IMG/VR virus record: IMGVR_UViG_3300027675_000004
Coordinates: 111,054-175,053 of that record
Length of the DNA stretch: 64,000 nucleotides
Direction: 5' to 3' (one strand)
DNA from: a virus
A model generated the notes under the pieces. It was not told the DNA's origin. It did no database searches and saw only the letters and a program-made list of their open reading frames with translations. A program made the position numbers and the translations under genes. Every line of letters starts with the position of its first letter. The first letter of the stretch is position 1. Shown piece after piece: positions 45,837 to 63,212 of the stretch.

Positions 45837-46061
45837 TTATATAAAATTTTTCCAATTTGCGGAATTAGCATCATAATCAGGATGATCTGGGTCATATTTA
45901 TCATTACAAGACGCAATGTACCGCTTGATCCCTTTTGGTTTAAATAAAGGTTTTAGCAGTAATAAAACATTAAAGTAAGATTGTTTACCAGAACAAGAAA
46001 TACAATATCCATACTGGTTATCTTCACCTAACTTAAGCGGTGGTTGGCAGTTGGTCTGCAA
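45837..46061 (-). CDS. Cys-containing hypothetical protein, TTG start, 74 aa
   Basis: The only start in frame is TTG at 46061; the protein has CQPPLKLGEDNQYGYCISCSG, quoted in parts as CQPPLKLG and YGYCISCSG, typical of small phage zinc-type proteins. The ending PDYDANSANWKNFI is acidic and aromatic. The region coding residues 1-9 also forms the 3' arm of the tRNA-like repeat element at 46037-46108, suggesting that recombination placed that element at the gene start and replaced the original ATG. Confidence 0.5.
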   Translation of the reverse strand: MQTNCQPPLKLGEDNQYGYCISCSGKQSYFNVLLLLKPLFKPKGIKRYIASCNDKYDPDHPDYDANSANWKNFI

Positions 46062-46108
46062 CTCTTCTAGGCTCGCACCCTGTCAGGCTACCACGCCACA
46101 ACCACCGC
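46037..46108 (-). repeat. tRNA-like mosaic element (copy C)
   Basis: The minus strand begins with GGCGGTGGTTGTGGCGT, the same 5' module as the elements at 60720 and 63078. A perfect 10-bp stem (46099-46108 with 46037-46046) closes the element. Inside it a short hairpin with a GACA tetraloop lies where an anticodon arm would be. The 3' arm overlaps the 74-aa gene start. It does not fold into a normal tRNA. Confidence 0.5.
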
Positions 46109-46135
46109 CTTGATGGTTATTTTATTAATTATTTA

Positions 46136-46429
46136 TCAAAGATTTAGAGATTTTTTAATCCAATCAACAATATTTTTTGCCTCTCGTAACCCTAATTGTT
46201 CTTTATCCCGCAAAAGTTTTATTGCCGGAATATAATTCCACTCATTTTCTAACAACATTGATTTAACTTCATTAAAATTACGTACCAATATCAAAGGTAA
46301 ACCGTCCACAACACACACTTTCATAGTATCTTCTAATTTATAATCCGCATAAATATCCAAAAGTGTCTGTTTTACTTCTATAATATCGTTAGAAAATATA
46401 GCTTTTGCCAGTTCTTTCTTTATATCCAT
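46136..46429 (-). CDS. Protein with ribosomal L7/L12-like C-terminal end, 97 aa
   Basis: The end AIKLLRDKEQLGLREAKNIVDW resembles the C-terminal domain of L7/L12 (KxxR...GLGLKEAKxLVD). The rest (MDIKKELAKAIFSNDIIEVK) is helical. Phage proteins that borrow this domain may bind translation factors or the ribosome stalk site. The resemblance is short and needs structural comparison. Confidence 0.62.
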   Translation of the reverse strand: MDIKKELAKAIFSNDIIEVKQTLLDIYADYKLEDTMKVCVVDGLPLILVRNFNEVKSMLLENEWNYIPAIKLLRDKEQLGLREAKNIVDWIKKSLNL

Positions 46430-46459
46430 TAGTCCTCCTGGTTATATTTTACTGATTTT

Positions 46460-46714
46460 TTATTTCATAATTTCATCAAATATTATCATATGTATTTCCT
46501 GTTCAGCCATTTCCCATGTATACCAAAGTTGAAGTGGTAACTGTAAAAAGACTCTTTCCTCAATTTTAGAGTAATCAGTATTGCCGAGATAATCAGCTTT
46601 AATGACCCTGCTTTTTTCTATCCGAGTCAATTTCTTTATCAACTCAATATTTTTTTTACCGATTGTGCGCGCCATATTAATAATCTTTCTTGAATGCGAA
46701 TCCCGCATATCCAT
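46460..46714 (-). CDS. Hypothetical protein, 84 aa
   Basis: The protein starts MDMRDSHSRKIINMARTIGK, is basic at its N-terminus and has a more acidic end. It overlaps the 126-aa gene by 38 bases in another frame. An alternative start further downstream (at INMARTIGK) would reduce the overlap. The role is unknown. Confidence 0.5.
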   Translation of the reverse strand: MDMRDSHSRKIINMARTIGKKNIELIKKLTRIEKSRVIKADYLGNTDYSKIEERVFLQLPLQLWYTWEMAEQEIHMIIFDEIMK

Positions 46715-47057
46715 CTTCTTCCGCTTTGTCTTTCAGCTTTAAAAGGTATGCGTGTAATTCTTCCTTTGCATTTTCGTCTGTCTGTGGATCTTTTTTGCAT
46801 GATATAAGTAAGGCGTGTTCATGCTCACTATACGAAAGTTTACCTTTGCATATACCGCATCGTGCCCCATGTTCTTCCGCTTCCTGTATACTATCTGTTG
46901 TTAACATACCACAATTGTTATCGCTCGCATAAACAACATGCCTTGGCGTAATACAATAGGGGTGTGGTACTCCGATACTATCAATTACTATAAAGTTACC
47001 ACTTTTACTTGCTGTTAGTTTATAATAATCCAACTTGTTTGCTATTTGTGTTGTCAT
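46677..47057 (-). CDS. Phage hypothetical protein with Cys pairs, 126 aa
   Basis: The segment SIGVPHPYCITPRHVVYASDN followed by HGARCGICKGKL and EHEHALLISCKKD is seen in phage proteins. CxIC and two other Cys positions could form a metal site. A helical tail (ENAKEELHAYLLKLKDKAEEDG) follows. Function is unknown. Confidence 0.65.
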   Translation of the reverse strand: MTTQIANKLDYYKLTASKSGNFIVIDSIGVPHPYCITPRHVVYASDNNCGMLTTDSIQEAEEHGARCGICKGKLSYSEHEHALLISCKKDPQTDENAKEELHAYLLKLKDKAEEDGYAGFAFKKDY

Positions 47058-47236
47058 AATAACTCTTCCTCTTCTATCGCCTCATCAGCGATATAATTTG
47101 GGTTGTGTAGGACATCTGGACGGAACTTCGACAATTTTAGTTTTACGCATTGAGAACAACCATAAAACAAAAAAATACCACGCGCATCATATTGTGCTTC
47201 TTTTTCTAACCCAGAACCACATTTACATTCACGCAT
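47054..47236 (-). CDS. Zinc-ribbon-type small protein, 60 aa
   Basis: The protein MRECKCGSGLEKEAQYDARG ends its first loop with CKCGSGLE and then has YGCSQCVKLKL, a CxCG...CxxC pair typical of zinc ribbons in phage proteins. The C-terminus is acidic (AIEEEELL). It overlaps the 126-aa gene by 4 bases. Confidence 0.65.
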   Translation of the reverse strand: MRECKCGSGLEKEAQYDARGIFLFYGCSQCVKLKLSKFRPDVLHNPNYIADEAIEEEELL

Positions 47237-47239
47237 TTT

Positions 47240-47440
47240 TTATTTCACAATCTCAATGCCTTGTCTACGCAAACCAGAAACAAGATGTTTTTCCAAAACT
47301 ACTTTCTCCCTGAATAAAGTGAAGTAAGGGAGTACGCTATGCGTATAATCGTATCTACGCATCTTACCCTCTTGCTTGGCTTTCTGTATTATCATATACG
47401 CTAATGTTTTGTAATGTTTGTGCAAGGTTATGTTTAACAT
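47240..47440 (-). CDS. Small helical protein, 66 aa
   Basis: MLNITLHKHYKTLAYMIIQK, KQEGKMRRYDYTHSVLPYFT and RRQGIEIVK make up this basic helical protein. It is probably a small DNA- or RNA-binding protein by charge only. No domain is recognised. Confidence 0.5.
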   Translation of the reverse strand: MLNITLHKHYKTLAYMIIQKAKQEGKMRRYDYTHSVLPYFTLFREKVVLEKHLVSGLRRQGIEIVK

Positions 47441-47459
47441 GGTTTTACCCTCTCTCTTT

Positions 47460-47621
47460 TTATAATTCGTTATTAATTTGTTGTCCTAAAGTAAGAGTAT
47501 CACTACTATAAAATTCGCAGGATAAACTTACATCATCCTCTACTGCACAATTCCAAATGTCGCACCATCCGTTAATTTTGTTATCACAGGTAGCGCAACA
47601 TTTATTACTATTTGGAGCCAC
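47460..47621 (-). CDS. Cys-rich zinc-type protein with GTG start, 53 aa
   Basis: GTG at 47621 follows AGGAGG at 5 bases. The product MAPNSNKCCATCDNKINGWC, then DIWNCAVEDDVSLSCEFY, has five closely spaced cysteines, suggesting zinc binding. A competing ATG in another frame gives only a 27-aa peptide. Confidence 0.6.
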   Translation of the reverse strand: MAPNSNKCCATCDNKINGWCDIWNCAVEDDVSLSCEFYSSDTLTLGQQINNEL

Positions 47622-47661
47622 ATCTACCTCCTTTCGTCCATATGTTTTTATTCACAAAAAG

Positions 47662-47847
47662 TTACAATTCTTTATATTGCTCACCTTGTGTGTGCTCATA
47701 CTCACAATCTGGACAAATAGTCATCAATTGTCTATGCCCGCATTTCTGGCATTTTGTCCAATGGTCTGTGGCAATCGCAATACCGCTTAACATACTCATT
47801 ATTACTATAAAAACCGTAATTAAAAGGTCTACAATAAACTGATACAT
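47662..47847 (-). CDS. Membrane protein with zinc ribbon, 61 aa
   Basis: An N-terminal membrane helix (YQFIVDLLITVFIVIMSMLS, residues 2-21) is followed by CQKCGHRQLMTICPDC, a standard zinc ribbon. Such anchored ribbons could connect membrane and DNA or RNA. The role is unknown. Confidence 0.65.
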   Translation of the reverse strand: MYQFIVDLLITVFIVIMSMLSGIAIATDHWTKCQKCGHRQLMTICPDCEYEHTQGEQYKEL

Positions 47848-47850
47848 CTT

Positions 47851-48606
47851 TTACTCCTTTCTTGTTATATTGTTTTTTTGTAATAATATTTTTAAAACCT
47901 GGTGAGTCTTTTTGCAATACAAATTATTTTTCTTTGCGTATTTTACCGCTTTCTCCAGTGTCGGAAAATTATTACATCCAATGGATAAAAGGTATTTATC
48001 TTGCTTATCAAGATAAATAATAACTTTATATGTATAAATACCATATAAACAAAAAACATGATTAAAAGAAAAACCACAATACTTGCACCCCTCACCGAAT
48101 GAACACCCCTTACCGAATGAACACCCCTTACCGAATGAACACCCCTCACCGAATGAACACCCCTCACCGAATGAACACCTCTTACCGAATGAACACCACT
48201 CACCGAATGAACACCACTCACCGAATGAACACCTCTTACCGAATAAACACCACTTACCGAATGAACACCTCTTACCGAATAAACACCCCTCACCGAATGA
48301 ACACCACTTACCGAATGAACATCCCTCACCGAATGAACACCACTCACCGAATGAACACCACTCACCGAATGAACACCTCTTACCGAATAAACACCCCTCA
48401 CCGAATGAACACCACTTACCGAATAAACACCCCTCACCGAATGAACACCACTTACCGAATAAACACCCCTCACCGAATGAACACCTCTTACCGAATGAAC
48501 ACCTCTTACCGAATGTATTTATTGCAGAATAATCCCCACTCGGGCACTGTTTTTTTCCATTTACTACCAGAAAGTTATCAAATTCCTTTTGAGTATATTT
48601 TTTCAT
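47851..48606 (-). CDS. Hexapeptide-repeat (left-handed beta-helix-like) protein, 251 aa
   Basis: About 24 tandem six-residue units of the form C-S/L-F-G-E/K-G/W/R occupy residues about 32-175. Each matches the hexapeptide rule (hydrophobic-Gly-x-x-small-x), so a left-handed parallel beta-helix with a hydrophobic Phe column and Cys on every turn is expected. The N-terminus (MKKYTQKEFDNFLVVNGKKQ) and the C-terminal helical part (CNNFPTLEKAVKYAKKNNLY) cap it. It is a likely surface or structural fibre or an antifreeze-like scaffold; no transferase active site is seen. The underlying 18-bp DNA repeats are recorded separately. Confidence 0.7.
   Translation of the reverse strand: MKKYTQKEFDNFLVVNGKKQCPSGDYSAINTFGKRCSFGKRCSFGEGCLFGKWCSFGEGCLFGKWCSFGEGCLFGKRCSFGEWCSFGEWCSFGEGCSFGKWCSFGEGCLFGKRCSFGKWCLFGKRCSFGEWCSFGEWCSFGKRCSFGEGCSFGEGCSFGKGCSFGKGCSFGEGCKYCGFSFNHVFCLYGIYTYKVIIYLDKQDKYLLSIGCNNFPTLEKAVKYAKKNNLYCKKTHQVLKILLQKNNITRKE
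48082..48513 (-). repeat. 18-bp tandem repeats coding the hexapeptide array
   Basis: About 24 copies of an 18-bp unit (ACCGAATGAACACCxCTx on the plus strand) span the array with only a few variable positions. The unit is a multiple of three, so the minus-strand reading frame is preserved; all other frames are also open by chance, which explains spurious frames on both strands. Confidence 0.9.
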
Positions 48607-48619
48607 ATCCCCACTCCTT

Positions 48620-49042
48620 TTATTCCCTGTCTAATAATTTAACATATCCACAATGTATCAAATGGTTGTCAAACTTACGGATATGCTGATACACTATACC
48701 AGAATCAGTTTTTTTCTCATAACATTCAGCAACATATATATTACCTGCAGAAAGTGCAAGCTGTCTTCCATTTGCTTCAATAGAAGTAATATATATTACT
48801 TCACCTTGCATGCCTTCTATTTCAATTTTGTCTCCAATGCGAATAAAGGGCGCTACTTGTTTTTTCATTAAGTGTTCCTCAATTTCTGTCAGTAACAGTT
48901 TACCCATTTCTAACAAGGTCTCGTCTTTCTCACACCATAACAGAGTTCCTTCTGTCGCACGTTTATATTGAGTACTATTTAACAGCGCCGCATTTAAAAT
49001 AGTAGCCAATTTACCAGCATCTAACATTATCATTTTACTCAT
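48620..49042 (-). CDS. Hypothetical protein, 140 aa
   Basis: The protein begins MSKMIMLDAGKLATILNAAL and is helical; a middle segment RIGDKIEIEGMQGEVIYITS forms an SH3-like beta stretch. The end has HIRKFDNHLIHCGYVKLL. The role is unknown. It overlaps the 55-aa gene by 8 bases. Confidence 0.55.
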   Translation of the reverse strand: MSKMIMLDAGKLATILNAALLNSTQYKRATEGTLLWCEKDETLLEMGKLLLTEIEEHLMKKQVAPFIRIGDKIEIEGMQGEVIYITSIEANGRQLALSAGNIYVAECYEKKTDSGIVYQHIRKFDNHLIHCGYVKLLDRE

Positions 49043-49202
49043 TATCCACCTCCGTAAGAGTTGTGTCTATGTCCGTAATTGTGCACGCGCATCCATCGTG
49101 CTCCAGTATATTTTTTATTTCCTTTGCTTTTTCGATTGTACTACAAATAATTTCATCATAGAAACCTTCGGGATCTATATAACACAATCTATACCGTTTC
49201 AT
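49035..49202 (-). CDS. Small hypothetical protein, 55 aa
   Basis: ATG at 49202 to TAA at 49035 encodes MKRYRLCYIDPEGFYDEIIC, then TIEKAKEIKNILEHDGCACT. It resembles small alpha-beta proteins. It is coupled with both neighbours by short overlaps. Role unknown. Confidence 0.55.
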   Translation of the reverse strand: MKRYRLCYIDPEGFYDEIICSTIEKAKEIKNILEHDGCACTITDIDTTLTEVDNE

Positions 49203-49711
49203 TTTTCCTCCCTTAACTTGAGCACTTTTTTCGCTCTCCTCATTTTAATGCAGTTGCAACAAGCCTCACAACGACCACACCCCATGCAGATCTCGTCCGC
49301 GTCAGTTCTTGTGCCACAAGAAGCACAGTTCACTCTCTCTCCTTTCTTTTTCTTCTTCGGCTTTATGATCCATTCACGCTTCTCCTTCATCTCTTTCACC
49401 GTATCTAAATACGATTGATGAAATTTGCTCCCGTTAAGATGAATAACCTGTAACTTATGTTTCTTCTCAATACAGCCTACAAGTAACGCCGAAAAGAATA
49501 TACGCTTGTTACGCATCTTTCTACCCTCGCTCATATATATATTAAACGAAGGTTTAATGATCCGCGCCCATGTTTTACGCTTCTTGTATCGCATTTCTTT
49601 TATCAGAGCAGGATCTTCTAATTCAATAACACTACTCTGCAACGCACGTTTCCCACATGTCTTACATACGATTATTGGAATGTTCTCTCTCACTCTGTTC
49701 AAAATAATCAT
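49199..49711 (-). CDS. Zinc-ribbon protein with basic linker, 170 aa
   Basis: An N-terminal CKTCGKRALQSSVI half-ribbon, a basic linker rich in Lys and Arg (KPKKKKKGERVN), and a C-terminal CASCGTRTDADEICMGCGRC plus CEACCNC cluster make two or three zinc sites. This suggests a nucleic-acid-binding protein. Ribosome site GGAG precedes. Confidence 0.65.
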   Translation of the reverse strand: MIILNRVRENIPIIVCKTCGKRALQSSVIELEDPALIKEMRYKKRKTWARIIKPSFNIYMSEGRKMRNKRIFFSALLVGCIEKKHKLQVIHLNGSKFHQSYLDTVKEMKEKREWIIKPKKKKKGERVNCASCGTRTDADEICMGCGRCEACCNCIKMRRAKKVLKLREEK

Positions 49712-49749
49712 AAGAAGCTCCTTTAAATTATGTTCTAATCAAAACCCGA

Positions 49750-50001
49750 TTAAGTAGAAAGTCTATCCTCTATTTCTGTTAGGACTTCTTTTAACGCAAT
49801 AACTATGCCCTCAAAATGGATACTATTATTTTTGTTATTGATTGCTGTTAAAGCGTAATCGCAAGCCCAATACAGTTTTTTCACTAATTTAGTCTCCTGC
49901 AACAACGCGTCCAGTACTTCATACACTTCTTTTGGATCAGCCTGTGCATACCCTTCTGCACAATAACGCTGTGCCTTTTCTATTGCTATCGCAATCTTCA
50001 T
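49750..50001 (-). CDS. Helical hypothetical protein, 83 aa
   Basis: The protein starts MKIAIAIEKAQRYCAEGYAQ and is mostly helical with LDALLQETKLVKKLYWACDY. It may form a helical bundle. Its neighbours are transcribed in the same direction with gaps of about 30 bases. Confidence 0.55.
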   Translation of the reverse strand: MKIAIAIEKAQRYCAEGYAQADPKEVYEVLDALLQETKLVKKLYWACDYALTAINNKNNSIHFEGIVIALKEVLTEIEDRLST

Positions 50002-50031
50002 TTTATAACACTCCTTTAGTACGCTCCTGCG

Positions 50032-50316
50032 CTATTTGTTATGTTTTTTCTTAAGTGGGGCTAACAACATTGGACATTCATGTTTCTTCTGCGTGAGCAC
50101 CTCACCGCAATCATAACATTCATCATTCAATGTAACCTGTTTTACATTCATAAAAACAGTGTTACATAAATCTTTTATACCTGAACGTAAAACTTCACGC
50201 CCGTTTTCGTGATACGCATTAATATCCTTCTCCAGATCAATACCCGTAATCGTTATCTCAAACTCCCGTACAACATTGTAGTCAATAAACTCAACTGTTG
50301 CTTTTATTTCTGGCAT
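50032..50316 (-). CDS. Zinc-type hypothetical protein, 94 aa
   Basis: The protein MPEIKATVEFIDYNVVREFE has a beta-rich start, GREVLRSGIKDLCNTVF, and a C-terminal CYDCGEVLTQKKHEC, a probable zinc-binding trio or tetrad. The leader ACCAAGCGAAAGGAG (reading minus) lies just upstream. The role is unknown. Confidence 0.6.
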   Translation of the reverse strand: MPEIKATVEFIDYNVVREFEITITGIDLEKDINAYHENGREVLRSGIKDLCNTVFMNVKQVTLNDECYDCGEVLTQKKHECPMLLAPLKKKHNK

Positions 50317-50345
50317 CTCTCTCCTTTCGCTTGGCTCTACGAGTA

Positions 50346-50567
50346 TTACTTTACTTTTGTTACTATTCCATCAACTAATGTTACCTCAGCGTACCATGTA
50401 TGGGCAGCTGGGTAATGCGGGCCCTCAACACTTGCTTTCCCTGTGTAATGCGAATCTGCTTTTGGATTATTAAACATATCGTTTGGTTGATAAATCCGTA
50501 CCTTATCCCCACGCGCAACTGCTTCCTTTAAAGCTTTTTTCGTTTTATAGTTATCGTAACAATACAT
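50346..50567 (-). CDS. Phage hypothetical protein (NYKTKKALKEAVARG type), 73 aa
   Basis: ATG at 50567 with AAGGAAAGG upstream is used; a longer frame has no site. The protein contains NYKTKKALKEAVARGDKVRIY, quoted as NYKTKKALKEAVA, then EGPHYPAAHTWYAEVTLVDG. This is a common phage and prophage family whose role is unknown. Confidence 0.75.
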   Translation of the reverse strand: MYCYDNYKTKKALKEAVARGDKVRIYQPNDMFNNPKADSHYTGKASVEGPHYPAAHTWYAEVTLVDGIVTKVK

Positions 50568-50587
50568 TGATTCACCTTTCCTTTCTT

Positions 50588-50716
50588 TTAGTAAGTGTCT
50601 CGACTTGTTTCCCCAATACCACAAAAACCCGCGCATAATAAAGCGAAAGCGAAATAACTGCTCACCCAGAATATCCCATATAAAACTTTTTCTAAAATAA
50701 ATAAAATATTCTGCAT
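50588..50716 (-). CDS. Membrane micropeptide, 42 aa
   Basis: ATG at 50716 with AAAGGAG upstream encodes MQNILFILEKVLYGIFWVSS, YFAFALLCAGFCGIGE and a short polar tail: one or two membrane passes. It is the last gene before the 11-bp array. Such peptides are often missed. Confidence 0.5.
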   Translation of the reverse strand: MQNILFILEKVLYGIFWVSSYFAFALLCAGFCGIGETSRDTY

Positions 50717-50854
50717 ATATGTCTCCTTTCTTTAGTTTTAAAATTCGAAATTCGCCTTTCGAGTTTTGCTGAAAGCAATCTTCCTTACAAAATAGCCTTG
50801 CATATATTATTGAAATTTAATTTTTATTTATTTGGATAAGATATAAAGGAATAT

Positions 50855-51074
50855 AGAACACGCTTAGAACACGCTTAGAGCACGCTTAGAACACGCTTAG
50901 AGCACGCTTAGAACACGCTTAGAACACGCTTAGAACACGCTTAGAGCACGCTTAGAGCACGCTTAGAACACGCTTAGAGCACGCTTAGAGCACGCTTAGA
51001 GCACGCTTAGAGCACGCTTAGAGCACGCTTAGAGCACGCTTAGAGCACGCTTAGAGCACGCTTAGAGCACGCTT
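50855..51074. repeat. 20 tandem copies of an 11-bp repeat (AGAACACGCTT/AGAGCACGCTT)
   Basis: Twenty 11-bp units occupy 220 bases without interruption. Only one position varies, AGAACACGCTT or AGAGCACGCTT. Eleven base pairs is close to one DNA turn, so every unit faces the same side, as in iterons that bind replication initiators. It lies in the gap between the membrane micropeptide and the 121-aa gene, 3 kb from the strand switch. No frame codes through it convincingly. Confidence 0.9.
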
Positions 51075-51097
51075 ACATTTTTCCCTATTGCTTGGTT

Positions 51098-51463
51098 TCA
51101 TCTTATAGCTGTTATATTGCATGTTTCAAACACAATCTGGTTGCAGTTGTTACAAATATGTACTATCGTTTCAGGGTATGTATGCTCTATACGAAAGTTC
51201 TTCCTTTCGCCGCAACTACATACATAGTGGATCCTAGCATAAGCTTTTTCTAAATGTTTTCCATCAAGCCCTATTAAATCCTCAAATACGGCTTGCGCAT
51301 TTTCGTTTACTGCAATTGTTTTTCCATTAACAGCTACATCTTCTCTCAACCCAAAATGACCCACGATCAGGTTGTTATTCCGAGCCACTCTCCATTCTTC
51401 AAAAAAGTATTTATCTTGCCTAGGTCCCTCAAGCCCTGTTATATATGCTATAATGCGTAACAT
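51098..51463 (-). CDS. Hypothetical protein with zinc-type cysteine pairs, 121 aa
   Basis: The N-terminal half is beta-rich (LRIIAYITGLEGPRQDKYFF), with YVCSCGERKNFRIEH and VHICNNCNQIVF in the C-terminal half, forming a zinc-ribbon-like CSCG...CNNC set. It is not a recognised enzyme. It precedes the array in transcription order. Confidence 0.62.
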   Translation of the reverse strand: MLRIIAYITGLEGPRQDKYFFEEWRVARNNNLIVGHFGLREDVAVNGKTIAVNENAQAVFEDLIGLDGKHLEKAYARIHYVCSCGERKNFRIEHTYPETIVHICNNCNQIVFETCNITAIR

Positions 51464-51499
51464 AGATTCTCCTTGCTAGATGCTAAAATTATAATTTGC

Positions 51500-53172: not shown

Positions 53173-53344
53173 AAAATGCCTACACCCTTTTACTGAAAAT
53201 AACATCCTTATTAAAAATTAGCTCCTGTTACCGTACTCTACCTTTTTAAAATAATTTTTATTAAAATATATCCCTATTAAAAAAATATGTCCATGTCCAT
53301 CTTATAAAATATAAAAACGCCTACATGCTTTTACTGAAAGTAAC
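53173..53344. repeat. Pair of 31-bp imperfect direct repeats
   Basis: Copies at 53173-53203 and 53314-53344 share 27 of 31 positions (AAAAxGCCTACAxxCTTTTACTGAAAxTAAC) and lie 141 bases apart. A similar GTTCCTG or GCTCCTGTT follows each. They could be protein-binding sites of an initiator or repressor next to the array. Confidence 0.7.
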
Positions 53345-53461
53345 GCTTTTAACATAAATCCGTTCCTGCCGCCTGTCAAGACTCACGCTTCGCTTTTCTC
53401 GCTTCTGTGTTATCGCTTCGCTTTTCTCGCTTCACGCTTCACTTTTATTTTTTATACTTAC

Positions 53462-54001
53462 GATTGGTACGATTGGTATGATTGGTATGATTGGTATGAT
53501 TGGTATGATTGGTATGATTGGTATGATTGGTACGATTGGTACGATTGGTATGATTGGTATGATTGGTACGATTGGTACGATTGGTATGATTGGTACGATT
53601 GGTATGATTGGTATGATTGGTATGATTGGTATGATTGGTACGATTGGTATGATTGGTATGATTGGTATGATTGGTATGATTGGTATGATTGGTATGATTG
53701 GTATGATTGGTATGATTGGTACGATTGGTATGATTGGTATGATTGGTACGATTGGTACGATTGGTATGATTGGTACGATTGGTACGATTGGTACGATTGG
53801 TATGATTGGTACGATTGGTACGATTGGTACGATTGGTACGATTGGTATGATTGGTACGATTGGTACGATTGGTATGATTGGTACGATTGGTATGATTGGT
53901 ATGATTGGTACGATTGGTACGATTGGTATGATTGGTACGATTGGTATGATTGGTATGATTGGTATGATTGGTACGATTGGTACGATTGGTACGATAGGTA
54001 C
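53462..54001. repeat. 60 tandem copies of a 9-bp repeat (GATTGGTAT/GATTGGTAC)
   Basis: Exactly 540 bases consist of 60 nine-base units, GATTGGTAY, with only the last base and one substitution (GATAGGTAC in the last unit) varying. Nine is a multiple of three, so all frames on both strands read through as (QSY)n or (MIG/TIG)n peptides. The region lies at the strand switch. It is a candidate origin, centromere or silencing array rather than a gene. Confidence 0.9.
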
Positions 54002-54083
54002 TGCATATATGATACTTATTGTAACTACAATAAGTCTAAAATTATGATAAAAAATATAACATAAAAAATATTAAAAAAAAGAC

Positions 54084-54111
54084 TTGACTTAAAATATCAT
54101 TATGAGATAAT
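54084..54111 (+). promoter_or_regulatory. Predicted rightward promoter
   Basis: TTGACT (54084-54089) and GATAAT (54106-54111) with 16-base spacing. The mRNA would begin near 54118 and reach the gene at 54260 after a leader of about 140 bases holding an AAGCTT inverted repeat. Confidence 0.6.
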
Positions 54112-57433: not shown

Positions 57434-57720
57434 GTTATAAAAAAAGTTTAGAAATGAAAATAATTAGAACAAAATATGAGGTTTATTTTTGTAAAGAAGT
57501 TCAAGCTTCTGCGGTAATTAGAGGGCTAAGAAATGGTGCTGATTTACAATATGAGACAAATATGCAATATTGGAACGAAGATTTAGGATTAGAAATTCCA
57601 GTAGTATATTTTATTTGTGATAGAAAATTATCTCATATTTCTAGTTCAATGATAAGAGAACTGAATAAATTAGGTTTACAGGATAAATTGAATATGTTGA
57701 ATTATGATTGTGGGTTATAG
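57430..57720 (+). CDS. Hypothetical protein, 96 aa
   Basis: ATG at 57430 overlaps the zinc ribbon stop and is preferred over a TTG upstream. The protein starts MSYKKSLEMKIIRTKYEVYF, contains GADLQYETNMQYWNEDLGLE and a helical end. No domain is recognised. Confidence 0.55.
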   Translation: MSYKKSLEMKIIRTKYEVYFCKEVQASAVIRGLRNGADLQYETNMQYWNEDLGLEIPVVYFICDRKLSHISSSMIRELNKLGLQDKLNMLNYDCGL

Positions 57721-57756
57721 AGGACTAAAAAAGGAAGAGATTGAATAGGGGTGAAT

Positions 57757-58227
57757 ATGAAAAACAAAAGAAATACTGGGAGAACTACTAGGATGTTGGA
57801 AGAGGCTAAAAAACTAGCTCTTTTAGGTAGGGCGGTGTATATTATTGCTGTTGATGAACAAGAAAGGAGAAGAATAGCTTTATTATTAGGTAATGAAAGT
57901 CCTTATAATAATAAATTCGGTATAAAAGTTGAAACTACAGCTTCTCTAGGGAACTTTGATTGGAATAATTTATCTTTACAAGGTGCTCATTATAATTGTA
58001 CGGTTTTAGTAGATCATTACGCAATAGAAAAGCATATTGGGGAAGCATTACTTACAGAATTAACGCGTTATGATGATAAGATTGAGATTGTTAAGAAAAA
58101 TGTAAATTTAAAACGAGGTCGTGTTTTTATTACGGTTATGGTTAATGGGAAGAAAAAACATTGGAATGTTGCAAAGGGACTTTATGAATTGTTAGTTAAA
58201 TTAATAGGGGTATCAGATGCAGAATAA
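57757..58227 (+). CDS. Phage P-loop-like protein (GRTTRMLEEAKKLA type), 156 aa
   Basis: ATG at 57757 with AGGGG upstream is preferred over a GTG 6 bases earlier. NTGRTTRMLEEAKKLALLGR (residues 6-25) matches a phage family with a GRTTRxL helix and an Asp strand (NCTVLVDHYAIE). A classical GxxxxGK[ST] loop is absent, so nucleotide binding is uncertain. The role is unknown. Confidence 0.7.
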   Translation: MKNKRNTGRTTRMLEEAKKLALLGRAVYIIAVDEQERRRIALLLGNESPYNNKFGIKVETTASLGNFDWNNLSLQGAHYNCTVLVDHYAIEKHIGEALLTELTRYDDKIEIVKKNVNLKRGRVFITVMVNGKKKHWNVAKGLYELLVKLIGVSDAE

Positions 58228-58408
58228 AAGTGAATTAAAAAATATAGGAATGAAATCTTTAGTGACTAGATTAACAGATTATGCATATTTACATGGTAAG
58301 AAAAAAGTAAAGAAGAAAGATGTTGATATTATATATAAGGAAATTATGGCAAGATTACGAAGGTTCAATATCCGTAAATATGGGGCACAGACTAAGTGTT
58401 TAACTTAA
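58217..58408 (+). CDS. Small basic protein, 63 aa
   Basis: The protein is basic and helical (MQNKSELKNIGMKSLVTRLT), with YLHGKKKVKKKDVDIIYKEI. It overlaps the P-loop-like gene by 11 bases. It may bind nucleic acid by charge. Its end overlaps the start of the 17-bp repeats. Confidence 0.55.
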   Translation: MQNKSELKNIGMKSLVTRLTDYAYLHGKKKVKKKDVDIIYKEIMARLRRFNIRKYGAQTKCLT

Positions 58409-58462
58409 AACAGTGTTTAACTTAAAACAGTGTTTAACTTAAAACAGTGTTTAACTTAAAAC
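58395..58462. repeat. Four tandem 17-bp repeats (AGTGTTTAACTTAAAAC)
   Basis: Four copies of AGTGTTTAACTTAAAAC lie end to end, each holding an imperfect palindrome GTTTAACTTAAAAC. A fifth partial copy (AGTGATTA) follows, then a TATAAT at 58481-58486 upstream of the 81-aa gene. They are likely binding sites of a regulator for that gene. Confidence 0.8.
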
Positions 58463-58514
58463 AGTGATTAATGTTTTAAATATAATAGACAGGGACAAAA
58501 TAAGGAGACTTTAA

Positions 58515-58760
58515 ATGGGAGATAATATATTAAGAGCAAAGTTTGTTGTATCAAGATTAGAAATTTTCGTAGGTAATATTAACGTAGAATTACTTCCGGC
58601 TATAACTGGGAGTGAAGAGAATAAAACATTTTCTAAGTACACTCCTTCTGGTAAAATAGCACTTACTATCACTAATGAACAAGCGTATGATTTTTTTAAA
58701 ATAGGTAAGGAGTATTATATAGATTTTACCAAAGCAGAGGATAGAATACACAATATTTAA
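58515..58760 (+). CDS. Hypothetical protein, 81 aa
   Basis: The protein begins MGDNILRAKFVVSRLEIFVG, with strands and an ALTITNEQAYDFFKIGKEYY end seen in phage proteins as KxxPxGxxxLxxxNxxAxxxFxxGxxYYxDF. The GGAG site at 58503-58506 precedes. The role is unknown. The repeats and TATAAT lie upstream. Confidence 0.65.
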   Translation: MGDNILRAKFVVSRLEIFVGNINVELLPAITGSEENKTFSKYTPSGKIALTITNEQAYDFFKIGKEYYIDFTKAEDRIHNI

Positions 58761-58771
58761 ACTTTAAAGTT

Positions 58772-58927
58772 GGCCTTATGGCGTTCTGATGAAAACGCTC
58801 TAGAGGAAACCTCGAACTAGATAGATAATCACGGTTTCATATGGCTTGGCGAGGATTGAGAGCCGTGTTATGATAGATAAATGACCATATGCTATCTCTA
58901 AAATCAAGTAAGAATCTTGTTAAGGCC
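58772..58927 (+). ncRNA. Candidate structured RNA with pseudoknot (about 156 nt)
   Basis: A 7-bp end stem (58772-58778/58921-58927) closes a 156-base intergenic region. Inside are hairpins GCGTT/AACGC (58781-58785/58794-58798) and GAGG/CCTC (58803-58806/58810-58813), a CACGG/CCGTG stem (58830-58834/58863-58867), and a contiguous 3' strand CCATATGCTATCT (58885-58897) which pairs with CATATGG (58838-58844) and AGATAG (58819-58824). The CATATGG pairing crosses the CACGG/CCGTG stem and forms a pseudoknot. No open frame explains it. It is not recognised as a known family. Confidence 0.6.
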
Positions 58928-58944
58928 TTTTAAATGGAGCTAAA

Positions 58945-59112
58945 ATGTTAAAAGAAAAACAAAAAAAATGGATAATGAGGATTATAAAAATTAAGGAAGA
59001 TGATGAAAAATTGTCTCAGGAATTGTTACAAGAATTTGGCGAGACTGTTAGTGAGGGGTACGATATTTTTATCAAGAGATTGGAGATAGTATTGAATAAA
59101 AAGAGCAAGTAA
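58945..59112 (+). CDS. Small helical protein, 55 aa
   Basis: ATG at 58945 with GGAGC upstream encodes MLKEKQKKWIMRIIKIKEDD, then EKLSQELLQEFGETVSEGYD. Fully helical and charged. It follows the RNA candidate by 17 bases. No domain is recognised. Confidence 0.55.
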   Translation: MLKEKQKKWIMRIIKIKEDDEKLSQELLQEFGETVSEGYDIFIKRLEIVLNKKSK

Positions 59113-59171
59113 AGTTGCTTTAGATTTAAGTTTATTAAATAAATATTATAAAATATAAAGGGGTGGGCAGC

Positions 59172-59870
59172 ATGTTAAAAATATCTAAGGGAAATATGTA
59201 TGACTGGGTTACACATATGCATTCTCATTTAGCTGGTGCATGTCTACATAAATGTAGTTATTGTTATGTGCAGAAGAATAGGTTTGGGGTCAGTCCACGT
59301 TATTTAGGTGATCTTAGATTAATTGAATCAGAGTTTGGGGTTGATTATGGTTTTAATAAAATAATATTTATTGAGCATATGAATGATATGTTTGCTAAAG
59401 AAATAGATAGGTTGTGGATAGTAAAGATTCTTAATCATTGTCGGAAATATTCTGGTAATCAATATGTGTTTCAGAGTAAAAACCCTAAACGGATGGTAGA
59501 ATTTCTTGCTTTATTTCCTAAGAATTCGCTTATTGGGACTACCATAGAAACTAATCGTAATATGGATAATATAAGTAAAGCACCACTATCTATGGAGCGC
59601 ATAGAGGGGATAACGCAAATTGCTGCTGCGGGTTTTAAAACATTTATTACGATTGAACCAGCTTTAGATTTCGATGCTCAAGATTTTGCATTATTAATTG
59701 TTAATGCTAAACCAAGTTTTGTTAATATAGGTATAGACAGTAAGAATTGTGGATTAAAAGAACCAAGTAAGGAAAAGATTTTAGAATTTATAAAATTACT
59801 CCAAGCAAATAATATTACTATAAAAAAGAAAATTAATTTGAAAAGGTTAGGTATTAATATGGAGCAATAA
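59172..59870 (+). CDS. Radical SAM-like phage protein (DUF5131/Gp37-like), 232 aa
   Basis: ATG at 59172 is preferred over a GTG 9 bases upstream because AAAGGGG lies 8 bases before it. NMYDWVTHMHSHLAGACLHKCSYCYVQK (residues 8-35, quoted in parts) has CxxxCxxC (C24, C28, C31), as in radical SAM enzymes; the MYxW..H..SxLxGxCxHKCxYCY box matches the phage DUF5131-type. FQSKNPKRM and TTIETNR are later barrel features. Substrate unknown; members lie in phages and may modify DNA bases or RNA. Confidence 0.82.
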   Translation: MLKISKGNMYDWVTHMHSHLAGACLHKCSYCYVQKNRFGVSPRYLGDLRLIESEFGVDYGFNKIIFIEHMNDMFAKEIDRLWIVKILNHCRKYSGNQYVFQSKNPKRMVEFLALFPKNSLIGTTIETNRNMDNISKAPLSMERIEGITQIAAAGFKTFITIEPALDFDAQDFALLIVNAKPSFVNIGIDSKNCGLKEPSKEKILEFIKLLQANNITIKKKINLKRLGINMEQ

Positions 59871-59933
59871 TATATAATTTAAACTCGAAGGACTCATCAC
59901 CACATACAAACAGAAGTTGGGGGAGGTAGGCAA

Positions 59934-60248
59934 ATGCTAAATAAAAAAGATTGGGAAGGGATAATTTATGTAAAAGGTAGGTTAAGCAAAAGAAAAGTGA
60001 TGAATGAATTATTAGACTATGGTTTTCTAATGGAACAAGCAAGTAAAGTATATGAATATTTTACAGGATTATCTAAAACAAATTATTATGCAAGCACAAT
60101 CATATCAAGAATAGAAGAAACAACTTATGATCAGAAAATTACTCAGGATGATGTAAAAATGTTAATTGAAGAAAGTAGTAGTAAGAAAGAATTAATAGAA
60201 AGTCTTTGTGAATATTTTGATTTAAACAAACAGAATCCGGACAAGTAA
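59934..60248 (+). CDS. Hypothetical protein, 104 aa
   Basis: ATG at 59934 follows GGGGGAGG at good distance. The helical, acidic protein (MLNKKDWEGIIYVKGRLSKR) contains ELLDYGFLMEQASKVYEYF, quoted in part. It resembles small phage proteins with helical bundle folds. Role unknown. Confidence 0.6.
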   Translation: MLNKKDWEGIIYVKGRLSKRKVMNELLDYGFLMEQASKVYEYFTGLSKTNYYASTIISRIEETTYDQKITQDDVKMLIEESSSKKELIESLCEYFDLNKQNPDK

Positions 60249-60258
60249 AGGAGAGGGT

Positions 60259-60510
60259 ATGAAACTAAGTAAAACACAACAAGAATTGTTAAATGATTTA
60301 AAGATGGGTGATTTTCTCCATTATATGCCTTACATGGGGAGTTACAATCCTACTTCTTATTATTTTATGCATAAAACAATGAATCATTACAAATTGGCAA
60401 CGGTTGATAAACTGATAAAGTTAGGATACTTAGAAGAATTTGATAGAGAAATTTATAGTGGAAATCACAAGGTTAGGCTTAAATCAATACCTACACAGGA
60501 GAACAAATAA
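60259..60510 (+). CDS. Hypothetical protein, 83 aa
   Basis: The protein starts MKLSKTQQELLNDLKMGDFL and contains HYMPYMGSYNPTSYYFMHKT, with KLATVDKLIKLGYLEEF near its end, similar to a winged-helix-like arrangement (KxTxxxLxxxGxL). It may be DNA-binding. AAGGAGAGG precedes the ATG. Confidence 0.6.
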   Translation: MKLSKTQQELLNDLKMGDFLHYMPYMGSYNPTSYYFMHKTMNHYKLATVDKLIKLGYLEEFDREIYSGNHKVRLKSIPTQENK

Positions 60511-60534
60511 CCAAAGGCGGAAAGGGAGTGAAGA

Positions 60535-60708
60535 ATGGATAATTGGAGTAATGAAGGTATCATTTTGGCTGTTGTTATAATGATTGTATCTATTGGGTTG
60601 GTTATCTGTTTGCCGATTTACAGTTACAAAATGAATTCTCAGTTTATAAAAAATGGGTACCATCAACAACAAAAGCTCGGTGAATCTGGGGTTATTTGGG
60701 TAAAATAA
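60535..60708 (+). CDS. Membrane microprotein, 57 aa (copy 1 of a duplicated gene)
   Basis: ATG at 60535 to TAA at 60708. The product has one membrane helix (IILAVVIMIVSIGLVICLPI, residues 9-28) and a cytoplasmic or periplasmic tail KMNSQFIKNGYHQQQKLGES with GVIWVK. A second copy with few changes lies at 63371-63544. Its leader is GGCGGAAAGGGAGTGAAGA, shared with other genes. Such FIxxGYxQxxxxGxxxxxWVK tails are found in small phage or plasmid proteins. Confidence 0.7.
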   Translation: MDNWSNEGIILAVVIMIVSIGLVICLPIYSYKMNSQFIKNGYHQQQKLGESGVIWVK

Positions 60709-60719
60709 TTAACTATCAA

Positions 60720-60793
60720 GGCGGTGGTTGTGGCGTAGTCTGGTTAAGCGCATCTTCGATAGAGGATAATCGTAGGTTCAAATCCTGCCGGTG
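60720..60793 (+). repeat. tRNA-like mosaic element (copy E)
   Basis: A tRNA-like D-arm (GCGT 60733-60736/GCGC 60748-60751 with a GTAGTCTGGTTAA loop) and a normal T-arm (stem 60772-60776/60784-60788 with loop TTCAAAT) are present. Between them the anticodon arm is a 6-bp hairpin (60752-60757/60762-60767) with a GATA tetraloop, so no anticodon is presented. The 5' module GGCGGTGGTTG (60720-60730) does not pair with the 3' end. It looks like a tRNA gene remnant or a tRNA mimic. Confidence 0.6.
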
Positions 60794-60815
60794 CACTGAT
60801 TAAAAAGGAGAGCTA

Positions 60816-61085
60816 ATGCAAGAATATAATGATGGAACATTTAGTAAGATTTTAGTGCAAGAGTCTTTAATAGATGCGTTAAGTGATCCTAAAGAAATGG
60901 CTAAAACTAAGGCAATTCATTTTGGAACATATGAAGAATTGCAAGCTATGAAAGACAAGGTTGAAAGGCTATCAGAAGCTAAGTCGGACAGTGTTAAAGA
61001 TTATCTCTTTCGTATTGAGAAAAAACTTAATAGGATTATCTTGAAACTTAATATCCAAGAACCAAATGAATTTTTAATAATTTAA
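60816..61085 (+). CDS. Hypothetical helical protein, 89 aa
   Basis: ATG at 60816 with AAGGAGAG upstream. The protein (MQEYNDGTFSKILVQESLID) contains a coiled-coil-like part (YEELQAMKDKVERLSEAKSD) and a basic helical end. It may be an adaptor. Role unknown. Confidence 0.6.
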   Translation: MQEYNDGTFSKILVQESLIDALSDPKEMAKTKAIHFGTYEELQAMKDKVERLSEAKSDSVKDYLFRIEKKLNRIILKLNIQEPNEFLII

Positions 61086-61097
61086 AAAGGAGTAACC

Positions 61098-61127
61098 ATG
61101 AAGGATAAGAAGCGGAAGAAATTATGA
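61098..61127 (+). CDS. Possible nine-residue peptide
   Basis: ATG at 61098 after AAGGAG encodes MKDKKRKKL and its stop overlaps the start of the following zinc gene (ATGA). This arrangement suggests translational coupling rather than a functional peptide. Confidence 0.3.
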   Translation: MKDKKRKKL

Positions 61128-61321
61128 GCATACACATTAAATTTGTTTGTCCTGAATGTAAGTCAAAAGTAGAAGGTTTGTTATCGCATTGGGAATATTC
61201 AGATGCCAAAAAACAAGATACTCCGATTTGTTTGCATATTTTATCTTGTGAAAGTTGTGGTGTATATGGGGTTTATATAGAATGTCCAAAATGTGAGAAA
61301 GAAATAGATGTTTATTCTTAA
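61124..61321 (+). CDS. Zinc-ribbon protein, 65 aa
   Basis: MSIHIKFVCPECKSKVEGLL, then LSCESCGVYGVYIECPKC: CPEC, CESC and CPKC are three Cys pairs, enough for one full zinc ribbon plus an additional pair. The start overlaps the coupling peptide. Typical phage microprotein. Confidence 0.68.
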   Translation: MSIHIKFVCPECKSKVEGLLSHWEYSDAKKQDTPICLHILSCESCGVYGVYIECPKCEKEIDVYS

Positions 61322-61423
61322 GAAAGGAGGGTAAATGAAGAAGAACAAGAAGCGAATAAAAGTTTGCTTCGTAGGATAGCGGCATATAAAGGTTTTCTAA
61401 AAAGAATGAAGAGGTAAGAAAAG

Positions 61424-61489
61424 ATGGATAGAGAAAGGTTAGAGCGTAGATTAACTGAGGCTATTGAGAGAGGGGAGATAACCAAATGA
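61424..61489 (+). CDS. Small charged peptide, 21 aa
   Basis: ATG at 61424 encodes a charged helix (MDRERLERRLTEAIERGEIT plus K) whose stop overlaps the ATG of the radical SAM gene (ATGA). It may be real or merely a translational coupler. Confidence 0.35.
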   Translation: MDRERLERRLTEAIERGEITK

Positions 61490-62313
61490 GAATAGCAAGA
61501 GTATTCCCAAGTAGAACAAGTATGACGCCAATAGATTCTTTATCTTTTTCGTATAAAGATGATCCCAGAGATTTATGGTTCCCAAGATATGAAGAAGTCC
61601 ACATCTCTTGTCAATTTACTTGGGATATCCCAAAAGCTAAAGAATTGGTAGAAAAATGGTCAGACGGTATTCATAAAGTAAAACTTGGAGGAGTTGCTAT
61701 TAACGGTGAAAGTGATAAACCCTTTGTACCTGGTATGTATCTTAAAAAAGGCATTACAATTACTTCAAGAGGTTGCCCGAATAATTGTAGTTTTTGTATA
61801 GTAAGAAAAGGAGTGATTGAGTTTGATGATTTCCCCGAAGGTAACATTATTCAAGACAACAATATTTTAGCGTGTTCAGATCGCTATTGGAGATTAGTTA
61901 TAAGTATGCTTAAAAAACAAAAATCTATCGAGTTTAAGGGTGGATTAGAAAAGTATCGAATTACTCCTAAGATAGCAGAAGATTTGCGAGGGTTAAGAAT
62001 AAAAACTTTATGGTTAGCGTGTGATCAACCGAATGGAATTGAGCCGTTAAGAAAAGCGATTGATATTTTACATAAAGCAGGGTTTACTAAAAACCATATT
62101 TATTGTTATGTTTTAATCGGAGATAATGCAAGAGAAAACATCCATAGACTAAACGAAGTATATCGTATGGGGTGCTTACCTTTTGCGCAATTATTCAAAA
62201 ATAAAGAAAACGATATTGAATACTCAAAAGGGTGGAAAAACTTTCAAAGACGATGGAGTAGAAGCGCTATCATCAAGAGGAAGAAGTTGGGGGAGTTGGA
62301 CAAACCGAGGTAA
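61486..62313 (+). CDS. Radical SAM protein, 275 aa
   Basis: The 4Fe-4S motif is GCPNNCSFC (C97, C101, C104), preceded by TITSRG as in MiaB-like and B12-domain radical SAM proteins; an N-terminal 90 residues (IDSLSFSYKDDPRDLWFPRY) is a phage-type extension. KLGGVAINGES and LWLACDQPNG are barrel strands. The substrate is unknown. It is preceded by the 21-aa peptide and followed by the pentad-repeat gene. Confidence 0.82.
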   Translation: MRIARVFPSRTSMTPIDSLSFSYKDDPRDLWFPRYEEVHISCQFTWDIPKAKELVEKWSDGIHKVKLGGVAINGESDKPFVPGMYLKKGITITSRGCPNNCSFCIVRKGVIEFDDFPEGNIIQDNNILACSDRYWRLVISMLKKQKSIEFKGGLEKYRITPKIAEDLRGLRIKTLWLACDQPNGIEPLRKAIDILHKAGFTKNHIYCYVLIGDNARENIHRLNEVYRMGCLPFAQLFKNKENDIEYSKGWKNFQRRWSRSAIIKRKKLGELDKPR

Positions 62314-62327
62314 ACAGGGAGGGGAGT

Positions 62328-62837
62328 ATGAAGATTTACAAAACGCAGCAAGAGGTTGAGGCAGATATTAAAGATGGAGTTTTGGCAATCGAGGGGAATG
62401 TAAAGTTTGAGTGTTCGATTTCAATTAGTGCGAGCATAGTTGTTACCGCCGGGGACATCACCGCCTGTGACATCAACGCCTGGGACATCACCGCCGGGAA
62501 CATCAACGCCGGGAACATCAACGCCTGTGACATCACCGCCAGGAACATCAACGCCAGGAACATCAACGCCGGGAACATCACCGCCTGTGACATCAACGCC
62601 AGGAACATCACCGCCTGTGACATCAACGCCGGGAACATCACCGCCAGGGACATCATATATTACGCTTTCTGTTGTGTTTACAACTCGATAAAATGTGTTT
62701 CGATTAAAGCCAAACGAGAGGCACACCAAGTACCTATTTGTTTAGACGGGAAGTTAGAGATTATAAAAGCACCTGAAAAGATTAGTAATCCAAAAGAGGT
62801 TATAATTAACAATGCAAAATACAGGTTAGTGGAATAA
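62328..62837 (+). CDS. Pentad-repeat (beta-helix-like) protein, 169 aa
   Basis: Residues 41-109 consist of about 14 five-residue units of the form A-x-D/N-I-T/N (AGDIT, ACDIN, AWDIT, AGNIN), giving an all-Ile column that fits a regular beta-helix. Flanking regions are a short N-terminal domain (MKIYKTQQEVEADIKDGVLA) and a C-terminal strand-rich part. Similar repeat proteins in phages are of unknown function; some beta-helix proteins mimic DNA or form fibres. The DNA repeats are recorded separately. Confidence 0.72.
   Translation: MKIYKTQQEVEADIKDGVLAIEGNVKFECSISISASIVVTAGDITACDINAWDITAGNINAGNINACDITARNINARNINAGNITACDINARNITACDINAGNITARDIIYYAFCCVYNSIKCVSIKAKREAHQVPICLDGKLEIIKAPEKISNPKEVIINNAKYRLVE
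62448..62654 (+). repeat. 15-bp tandem repeats coding the pentad array
   Basis: About 14 copies of a 15-bp unit (GCCxxGRACATCAMC type: RAC ATC A) stand end to end with limited variation. As a multiple of three the unit keeps the frame; frames on the other strand are also open by chance. Confidence 0.85.
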
Positions 62838-62865
62838 CCAAAGCCGATAAGGTGGAAAGGGAGAA

Positions 62866-63066
62866 ATGAATGTTTATAAATGTACCATAGCAGTTAAAAA
62901 GACGGGTTATTTACCAGGAACAGAAGATGATACAACAATAATCAATGTATTAGCTAAGAATCTGAAGCACGCAATTAGTAAAGCGTCTACTTATCGGTTG
63001 GCTGGAGAAGTAAAGAAAACAACTTCAGTTGTTGATGCCACCCTTGTTATAGTTATTGATAAGTAA
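62866..63066 (+). CDS. Small hypothetical protein, 66 aa
   Basis: The protein MNVYKCTIAVKKTGYLPGTE has strands, then AKNLKHAISKASTYRLAGEV and a VDATLVIVIDK end. The YxCxIxVKKTGYLPGxEDDxxxxxVxAKNxxHAI layout is found in phage proteins. A leader AAGCCGATAAGGTGGAAAGGGAG precedes, in parts. Confidence 0.62.
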   Translation: MNVYKCTIAVKKTGYLPGTEDDTTIINVLAKNLKHAISKASTYRLAGEVKKTTSVVDATLVIVIDK

Positions 63067-63077
63067 CTAACAATCAA

Positions 63078-63212
63078 GGCGGTGGTTGAGGCGTATTGAA
63101 TACGCCAAACGGTTACGGTGTTGACTTGATAAAGTCCTTAAAATCGTAGAGCCGTATTAACCGTAAAGGAAATAAAACAAGTCCTGCAGGTCAAATCCTG
63201 CCAATCACCGCC
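63078..63212 (+). repeat. tRNA-like mosaic element (copy F) with large insert
   Basis: A 7-bp acceptor-like stem (GGCGGTG 63078-63084/CACCGCC 63206-63212) closes the element. Inside are a 7-bp hairpin with TGA loop (63090-63096/63100-63106), a compound helix (63109-63118 with 63152-63164), a hairpin GACTT/AAGTC with GATA loop (63123-63136) and a T-arm-like hairpin with six-base loop (63186-63190/63197-63201). It is too large and lacks an anticodon loop, so it is not a normal tRNA. Confidence 0.6.

What the first reader, a model, noticed from the sequence alone, without database searches (positions are those of the whole stretch)
46037..63212. Family of three tRNA-like mosaic elements sharing a 5' module
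The elements at 46037, 60720 and 63078 begin with GGCGGTGGTTG but differ afterwards. Two close with perfect acceptor-like stems (10 bp and 7 bp), one has a tRNA D-arm and T-arm, and all have GNNA tetraloop hairpins where an anticodon would be. None can read a codon. They may be tRNA mimics that bait host tRNA nucleases or RtcB substrates, or recombination hotspots that shuffle small genes.
Basis: partly seen in the sequence, partly recalled or inferred. Interest (0 to 1): 0.78.

Follow-up and report, generated by a model that had tools for sequence, protein, structure and literature searches.

The report
Phage tRNA-scaffold RNAs between genes
This freshwater virus carries at least six copies of an RNA element that looks like a transfer RNA with its codon-reading arm replaced by a changeable insert; the same kind of element sits between genes in over twenty other uncultured viruses and matches no family in the RNA database searched, so it is a likely new family of phage RNAs whose job has yet to be tested.

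Summary
GGCGGTGGTTG occurs four times in the 175-kb virus record; E1 lies on the minus strand and a fourth copy (E4) lies outside the window. E1 and E3 close with 10-11 bp stems. E2 has a real D-arm and T-arm, but E2 and E4 lack a convincing acceptor stem.

The motif led to something larger. Another element in the window (E0, 58772-58927) has a diagnostic D-arm, GGCGUU[CUGRYGAA]AACGC, also found in 21 other loci, nearly all uncultured virus contigs. They share one plan: acceptor stem, U, D-arm, hypervariable third arm (about 20-145 nt), T-arm, acceptor strand. The acceptor helix, not used as bait, covaries at 8 of 8 pairs. Elements lie in sense between co-directional genes, often just upstream of a Shine-Dalgarno site. 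Near-identical phages differ by one whole element bounded by the shared 5' module, and E2/E4 look like chimeras, so the mosaic claim has support.

The D-arm core is absent from 50,697 phage and 72,556 plasmid records. Best explanation (untested): tRNA mimics cut out of polycistronic mRNA by tRNA-processing enzymes, freeing downstream mRNAs and a scaffolded variable RNA. Baiting of anticodon nucleases or RtcB is not supported.

The parts
46036..46109 (-). E1, tRNA-like element: 11-bp closing stem GGCGGUGGUUG/CAACCACCGCU, hairpins at D and T positions
   Evidence: fold z -2.57 on the minus strand; lies 26 nt after the stop of the upstream minus-strand gene
58772..58927 (+).
   Evidence: found; sequence; exact D-arm motif shared with IMG/VR members; its own fold is only mildly better than shuffles
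58780..58798 (+). E0 D-arm GGCGUU[CUGAUGAA]AACGC
   Evidence: exact match to the diagnostic motif
58905..58919 (+). E0 T-arm position: CAAG[UAAGAAU]CUUG, a diverged T-loop
   Evidence: fold
60720..60798 (+). E2, tRNA-like element with 5' module of the E1/E3 type and 3' module of the E5 type; acceptor not convincingly paired
60733..60751 (+). E2 D-arm GCGU-AGUCUGGUUAA-GCGC with G18G19-like GG
   Evidence: Rfam tRNA alignment, 22.4 bits
60752..60767 (+). E2 hairpin AUCUUC-GATA-GAGGAU in place of the anticodon arm
   Evidence: sequence, fold
60772..60788 (+). E2 T-arm GUAGG-UUCAAAU-CCUGC
63078..63212 (+). E3, tRNA-like element: 11-bp acceptor (63078-63088 with 63202-63212), D-position hairpin GGCGUAU-UGA-AUACGCC (63090-63106), structured third arm with GATA loop, T-position arm GCAGG-UCAAAU-CCUGC (63186-63201)
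   Evidence: fold z -7.00, 0 of 200 shuffles as good
60816..61085 (+). gene after E2 (start 15 nt after the element, preceded by AAGGAG)
   Evidence: no Pfam family
61486..62313 (+). radical-SAM-like gene near E2/E3; its homologue in phage G005 also lies about 1.1 kb from an element
19792..21024 (-). RtcB RNA ligase gene; not part of the family (absent from the other member records)
   Evidence: 1 of 19 records has RtcB

Best explanation
E0-E5 belong to a family of phage-borne tRNA-mimic RNAs (E0 clearly; E1-E5 by architecture and position). Each is a tRNA frame: acceptor stem of 7-11 bp, one linker base, a D-arm, and a T-arm whose loop could form the tRNA elbow, with the anticodon arm replaced by a freely varying third arm (frame shown by sequence and covariation; elbow inferred). 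The elements are embedded in sense between co-directional genes, often directly upstream of a Shine-Dalgarno site (shown). Most likely tRNA end-processing enzymes (RNase P at the 5' end; RNase Z or exonucleases plus CCA addition at the 3' end) recognise the frame and cut the element out of the polycistronic mRNA, separating the upstream message from a downstream message that starts near its ribosome-binding site, and freeing a protected tRNA-like RNA that carries the third arm (inferred). The conserved end modules also serve as homology for recombination, so whole elements are gained and lost (shown for G018/G019) and interiors are swapped (inferred for E2/E4 and G016/G017).
For: 22 members share the plan; the acceptor helix, not used as search bait, has changes on both sides at 8/8 pairs, 95.5% of cells paired, and the whole structure exceeds shuffles and slid controls on every measure bar one (1/500). 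22 of 27 elements have a sense neighbour at close range against 4 of 27 on the antisense control, both neighbours 9 against 0. Downstream genes differ, e.g. a DNA methyltransferase in L274, so this is not one gene's leader. No element lies inside a long same-strand ORF. An insert with the same D-arm lies in the intervening loop of a permuted tmRNA. Plant mitochondrial t-elements are a precedent for tRNA-like sequences cut by RNase P and RNase Z at mRNA ends (PMC11658184).
Against: No transcript, cleavage or binding data. E2 and E4 have poor acceptors (and inspection). Only one to six elements per genome, so it is not general punctuation. E1-E5 lack the CUGRYGAA D-loop. The D- and T-arms were search bait, and the acceptor register was set by pairing. 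The elaborate, often structured third arm is unexplained if cutting alone matters.
Confidence: 0.4

Rival explanations
1. Natural tRNA scaffold for cargo RNA: the frame exists to protect and mature a small RNA, and the variable third arm is the working part (antisense RNA, sponge, or bait for a host factor); effects on the flanking mRNAs are incidental.
For: Constant ends with unrelated interiors in E2/E4, G016/G017 and the tandem pair in G018; interiors slightly more stable than shuffles (mean z -1.0); a closing helix at a fixed distance from the T-arm in many members.
Against: No two interiors resemble each other, interior length falls to 21 nt in L272, and no target is known.
Confidence: 0.28
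2. Cis-acting leader: the structure next to the Shine-Dalgarno site controls translation or stability of the downstream gene without being cut out.
For: Starts lie 12-26 nt after the element in about half of the members, with a Shine-Dalgarno match in between.
Against: Downstream genes are diverse; phage spacers are tight anyway; a full tRNA frame with a T-loop is not needed for a leader; some elements have no start within 30 nt.
Confidence: 0.12
3. Decaying tRNA genes or DNA-level repeats (MITE-like): remnants that spread by recombination and have no RNA function.
For: E2 resembles a degenerate tRNA; copies recombine and are present or absent in near-identical phages.
Against: Compensatory changes in the acceptor and in D- and T-stems across 22 members, strict sense orientation, and no tRNA genes at all in most member contigs.
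Confidence: 0.1
4. Decoys for host tRNA nucleases, or RtcB substrates.
For: tRNA-like frame; this phage encodes RtcB and a large tRNA/tmRNA array.
Against: No anticodon loop in any member; RtcB in 1 of 19 records; most other member contigs carry no tRNA genes.
Confidence: 0.05

Closest known systems
Plant mitochondrial t-elements (PMC11658184)
   Same: tRNA-like sequences joined to mRNAs in sense, with no decoding role; known there to be cut by RNase P and RNase Z and CCA-tailed but not charged
   Different: t-elements are homologous to particular tRNA genes; the phage elements have their own D-loop, 7-11 bp acceptors and an expanded third arm, and processing is not shown
tmRNA, including permuted tmRNA (RF00023, RF04321)
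   Same: acceptor and T-arm with the anticodon arm replaced by a large insert; an element with the exact D-arm lies in the intervening loop of a phage permuted tmRNA (L267)
   Different: real D-stem of 5-6 bp; no tmRNA match above cut-off for the D-arm members scanned; most interiors are too short for the tmRNA pseudoknots
tRNA (RF00005)
   Same: D-arm with GG in the loop of most members, T-arm with UUCRAAU loop, acceptor, frequent unpaired A after the acceptor
   Different: no anticodon loop; acceptor often longer than 7 bp; mostly below cut-off or unmatched
Engineered tRNA scaffold for recombinant RNA (PMC3753655 is one such paper)
   Same: an RNA insert takes the place of the anticodon arm of a tRNA frame
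   Different: laboratory construct; here natural, between genes, with a different D-arm
Bacterial Y RNAs with tRNA-like modules (YrlA; recalled, not read here)
   Same: bacterial tRNA mimic without decoding
   Different: no Rfam match to Y RNA families in any scan made

Membership tests
tRNA-scaffold family defined here | closing acceptor stem of at least 7 bp abutting a T-position hairpin | tested here: met
   E0 7 bp, E1 10+1 bp, E3 11 bp, E5 9 bp; not met by E2 and E4
tRNA-scaffold family defined here | D-arm with CUGRYGAA loop | tested here: inconclusive
   met by E0; E1-E5 have other hairpins or a tRNA-type D-arm (E2) at this position
tRNA-scaffold family defined here | sense placement between co-directional genes | tested here: met
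   E0-E5 all have a close sense neighbour and none an antisense one
tRNA (RF00005) | score above the Rfam gathering cut-off | tested here: not met
   no match in the window; E2 22.4 of 29 bits; L272 alone reaches 33.0 in a permissive scan
tRNA (RF00005) | 7-nt anticodon loop | tested here: not met
   tetraloops or long third arms instead; ARAGORN finds no tRNA in the window
tmRNA (RF00023/RF04321) | match above cut-off to the tmRNA models | tested here: not met
   no window match; G016 carries a separate tmRNA-like 99-mer
plant t-elements | cleavage by RNase P and RNase Z | not testable with these tools
   needs RNA end mapping or in vitro cleavage
plant t-elements | homology to an identifiable tRNA gene | tested here: inconclusive
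   E2 only, 22.4 bits
integron attC cassettes | integron integrase | tested here: not met
   phage recombinase 38.6 bits against a cut-off of 265
RtcB substrates | RtcB co-occurs with the element | tested here: not met
   only G000 among 19 records

The most novel reading that the evidence does not exclude
A natural counterpart of the laboratory tRNA scaffold: a widespread phage RNA family in which a constant tRNA frame matures and displays swappable RNA cargo, exchanged by recombination at the constant ends, giving each phage a private set of stable effector RNAs.
Probability: 0.27. Interest if true: 0.86.

Novelty: new variant of a known kind. Interest (0 to 1): 0.62.

Why it matters
Non-decoding tRNA mimics are known from plant mitochondria, plant viruses and tmRNA. 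A recurring, covarying, recombining tRNA-mimic family across uncultured phages, without an Rfam family and absent (by its D-arm core) from annotated phage records, would be a new RNA family. It would give phages a way to cut polycistronic messages, or to make stable RNAs, with tRNA enzymes. It is directly testable with short constructs.

Tried and rejected
Blastn of E3, the L195 element and L314 against the phage collection: nothing; L272 found only tRNA T-arms and similar short matches. The D-arm core in phages and plasmids gave only partial matches in coding genes.

IMG/VR scans for CAAGGCGGTGGTTG and GGCGGTGGTTGNGGCGT found only the same virus in sister samples plus hits elsewhere without the rest of the element.

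L191:3806 (GGCGGTG..CACCGCC) looked like a relative but folds little better than shuffles (z -1.3): dropped.

Integron cassettes (repeated gene-junction motif): dropped, no GTTRRRY-type core seen by eye and the recombinase is far below the integron-integrase cut-off. Intron within an ORF: upstream genes end with a stop before the elements. Hammerhead ribozyme (CUGAUGA in E0): other members have CUGGCGA/CUGGUGA inside a closed hairpin. General punctuation as in mitochondria: too few elements per genome.

No covariance model of whole elements was built because the interiors vary too much in length; a 54-column joined alignment was used instead. A descriptor scan of all non-coding gaps of this genome added E5 but has a notable chance rate (7 segments against 4 in shuffles), so E5 rests on its 9-bp acceptor, its position and its complementarity to E4. 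The closest relative (G007, capsid 79% identical) showed no element by descriptor, but its record may be incomplete.
Full report
Setting. The window is the last 64 kb of a 175,053-b virus record. Sister contigs span the record's two ends, so the genome is effectively circular. It is a phage with a major head protein. It has a tRNA array with 29 tRNAs and a tmRNA by ARAGORN, an RNase P RNA (112.2 bits, cut-off 100), a CCA-adding enzyme and RtcB.

The observation. GGCGGTGGTTG occurs four times exactly in the record. E1 must be read on the minus strand. E1 and E3 have 10-11 bp closing stems; E3 folds far better than shuffles (z -7.0), E1 moderately (z -2.6), E2 not at all (z 0.0). E2 has a textbook D-arm and T-arm but a broken acceptor and scores 22.4 bits as tRNA against a cut-off of 29. 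E4, at about record 106-279, shares its 5' module with all and its 3' module with E2 (AATCCTGCCGG[TC]GCACTGATTAAAAAGGAGAGC); the interiors of E2 and E4 are unrelated.

Finding the family. A homologue of the radical-SAM gene near E2/E3 led to another phage contig (L195/G005), where an element has a perfect 10-bp acceptor and a perfect T-arm. Comparing non-coding gaps showed a further element in the window, E0 (58772-58927), with the same hairpin GGCGUU[CUGRYGAA]AACGC as L195. A scan of IMG/VR for that hairpin gave 25 stretches; most sit in the same plan: acceptor, U, D-arm, variable region, T-arm, acceptor strand. In GTDB the same scan gave 11 hits, of which L274 and L282 are full members and L279 is cut by a contig end; the other eight lack the rest of the plan. 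L274 and L282 lie among phage-type genes. Gapped scans that fix only the D-loop and T-loop added members with altered D-stems, such as GGUGUU..AACACU (L314), a C-G to U-A double change, and AGCGCC (L292); many other hits of these scans were ordinary tRNAs or chance and were set aside.

Is the structure real? On a 22-sequence joined alignment 93.5% of cells pair (73.4% in shuffles, at most 46.9% when slid), and the acceptor helix has changes on both sides at all 8 pairs. The D- and T-arms were search bait, so their conservation is partly by selection; the acceptor was not, although its register was set by pairing. Full elements are more stable than shuffles on average (mean z -2.8), interiors only slightly (mean z -1.0). 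In many members the third arm is closed by a 5-7 bp helix followed by AAA and the T-arm.

Where they sit. 22 of 27 elements have a sense gene ending just upstream or an SD-preceded start just downstream, against 4 of 27 for the antisense control; both neighbours fit for 9 in sense and 0 in antisense. Downstream genes are diverse or without known family. In L267 an insert of about 110 nt, with the exact D-arm and its own closing stem, lies in the intervening loop of a permuted tmRNA relative to the Rfam consensus; its T-position hairpin is not canonical, so its membership is likely rather than certain.

Recombination. G018 and G019 are 99.95% identical over 4.39 kb; G018 carries two tandem elements where G019 carries one, and the missing unit runs from one copy of GCCCCGCTGTGG to the next. 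Elements of G016 and G017 share end modules (97% over 34 nt, 89% over 47 nt) but not the interior. In this phage E5 (record 5340-5447; AGTGCGCCA...TGGCGCATT) has the 5' strand to which the 3' strands of E2 and E4 are complementary, so E2 and E4 are best read as chimeras of E1/E3-type and E5-type elements (inference). A 190-nt duplication in the window (60535-60724 and 63371-63560, 95% identical) ends exactly at AAGGCGG, with E2 after one copy and none after the other.

What it does. Shown: a tRNA-like frame, sense placement between genes, conserved ends, interchangeable interior. Inferred: recognition by tRNA end-processing enzymes, by analogy with plant mitochondrial t-elements, which RNase P and RNase Z cut at mRNA ends and which are CCA-tailed but not charged (PMC11658184). 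Whether the third arm is cargo or filler is open. Baiting of anticodon nucleases is unlikely without an anticodon loop. A role of RtcB has no support, since it is found in only 1 of 19 records; the same holds for a phage-encoded RNase P RNA, so processing would have to rely on the host enzyme in the other phages.

Novelty. The D-arm members scanned have no Rfam match at the gathering score; in a permissive scan L272 alone scored as a tRNA (33.0 bits). Not every member was scanned. The full D-arm core was not found in 50,697 phage or 72,556 plasmid records. Literature searches in open-access full text gave no description of such a family; subscription papers and preprints are not covered.

Limits. 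No expression data. Members come mostly from fragmentary metagenomic contigs and hosts are unknown. Membership of E1-E5 rests on architecture and position, not on the diagnostic D-loop.

Noticed in passing
record 93682-93944 (-) = L009:13682-13944; tRNA array record 84587-94405: The phage encodes its own RNase P RNA (RF00010, 112.2 bits, cut-off 100) inside an array with 29 tRNAs, a tmRNA and a CCA-adding enzyme; the RNase P RNA was not found in the 18 other records searched.
   Followed up: partly
L339:8300-8398 (G016): A 99-nt tmRNA-like RNA (RF00023, 49.1 bits, cut-off 47) with acceptor, D-loop region, T-arm and CCA but almost no mRNA-like domain, in a phage that also carries a family element.
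   Followed up: partly
L267:441-754; also L257, L260, L261, L270, L271: Phage permuted tmRNA (RF04321) with an extra tRNA-like insert of about 110 nt between acceptor and coding pieces (L267); the same D-arm motif follows a CCA-ending tRNA-like 3' end in the other contigs.
   Followed up: partly
window 47996-48605, 50799-51117, 53333-54100, 62417-62700, 63934-64000: Several coding or spacer tandem-repeat arrays with periods of 18, 11, 9, 15 and 18 nt; the last runs on at the start of the record.
   Followed up: no
window 2483-4228 (-): 581-aa protein with primase-type N-terminal matches and an intein C-terminal splicing signature (TIGR01443), so probably intein-containing.
   Followed up: no
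L195 about 8205-8365: A second structured non-coding gap in phage G005 (GUGGCUCG..CGAGCCAC closing stem, z -3.1) about 400 nt before its clear element, with the same flanking repeat CACTAACAAAGGTGG.
   Followed up: partly
window 45837-46061 (-): The ORF after E1 can only start (TTG) inside E1, as if insertion or recombination of E1 had replaced the gene's 5' end.
   Followed up: no
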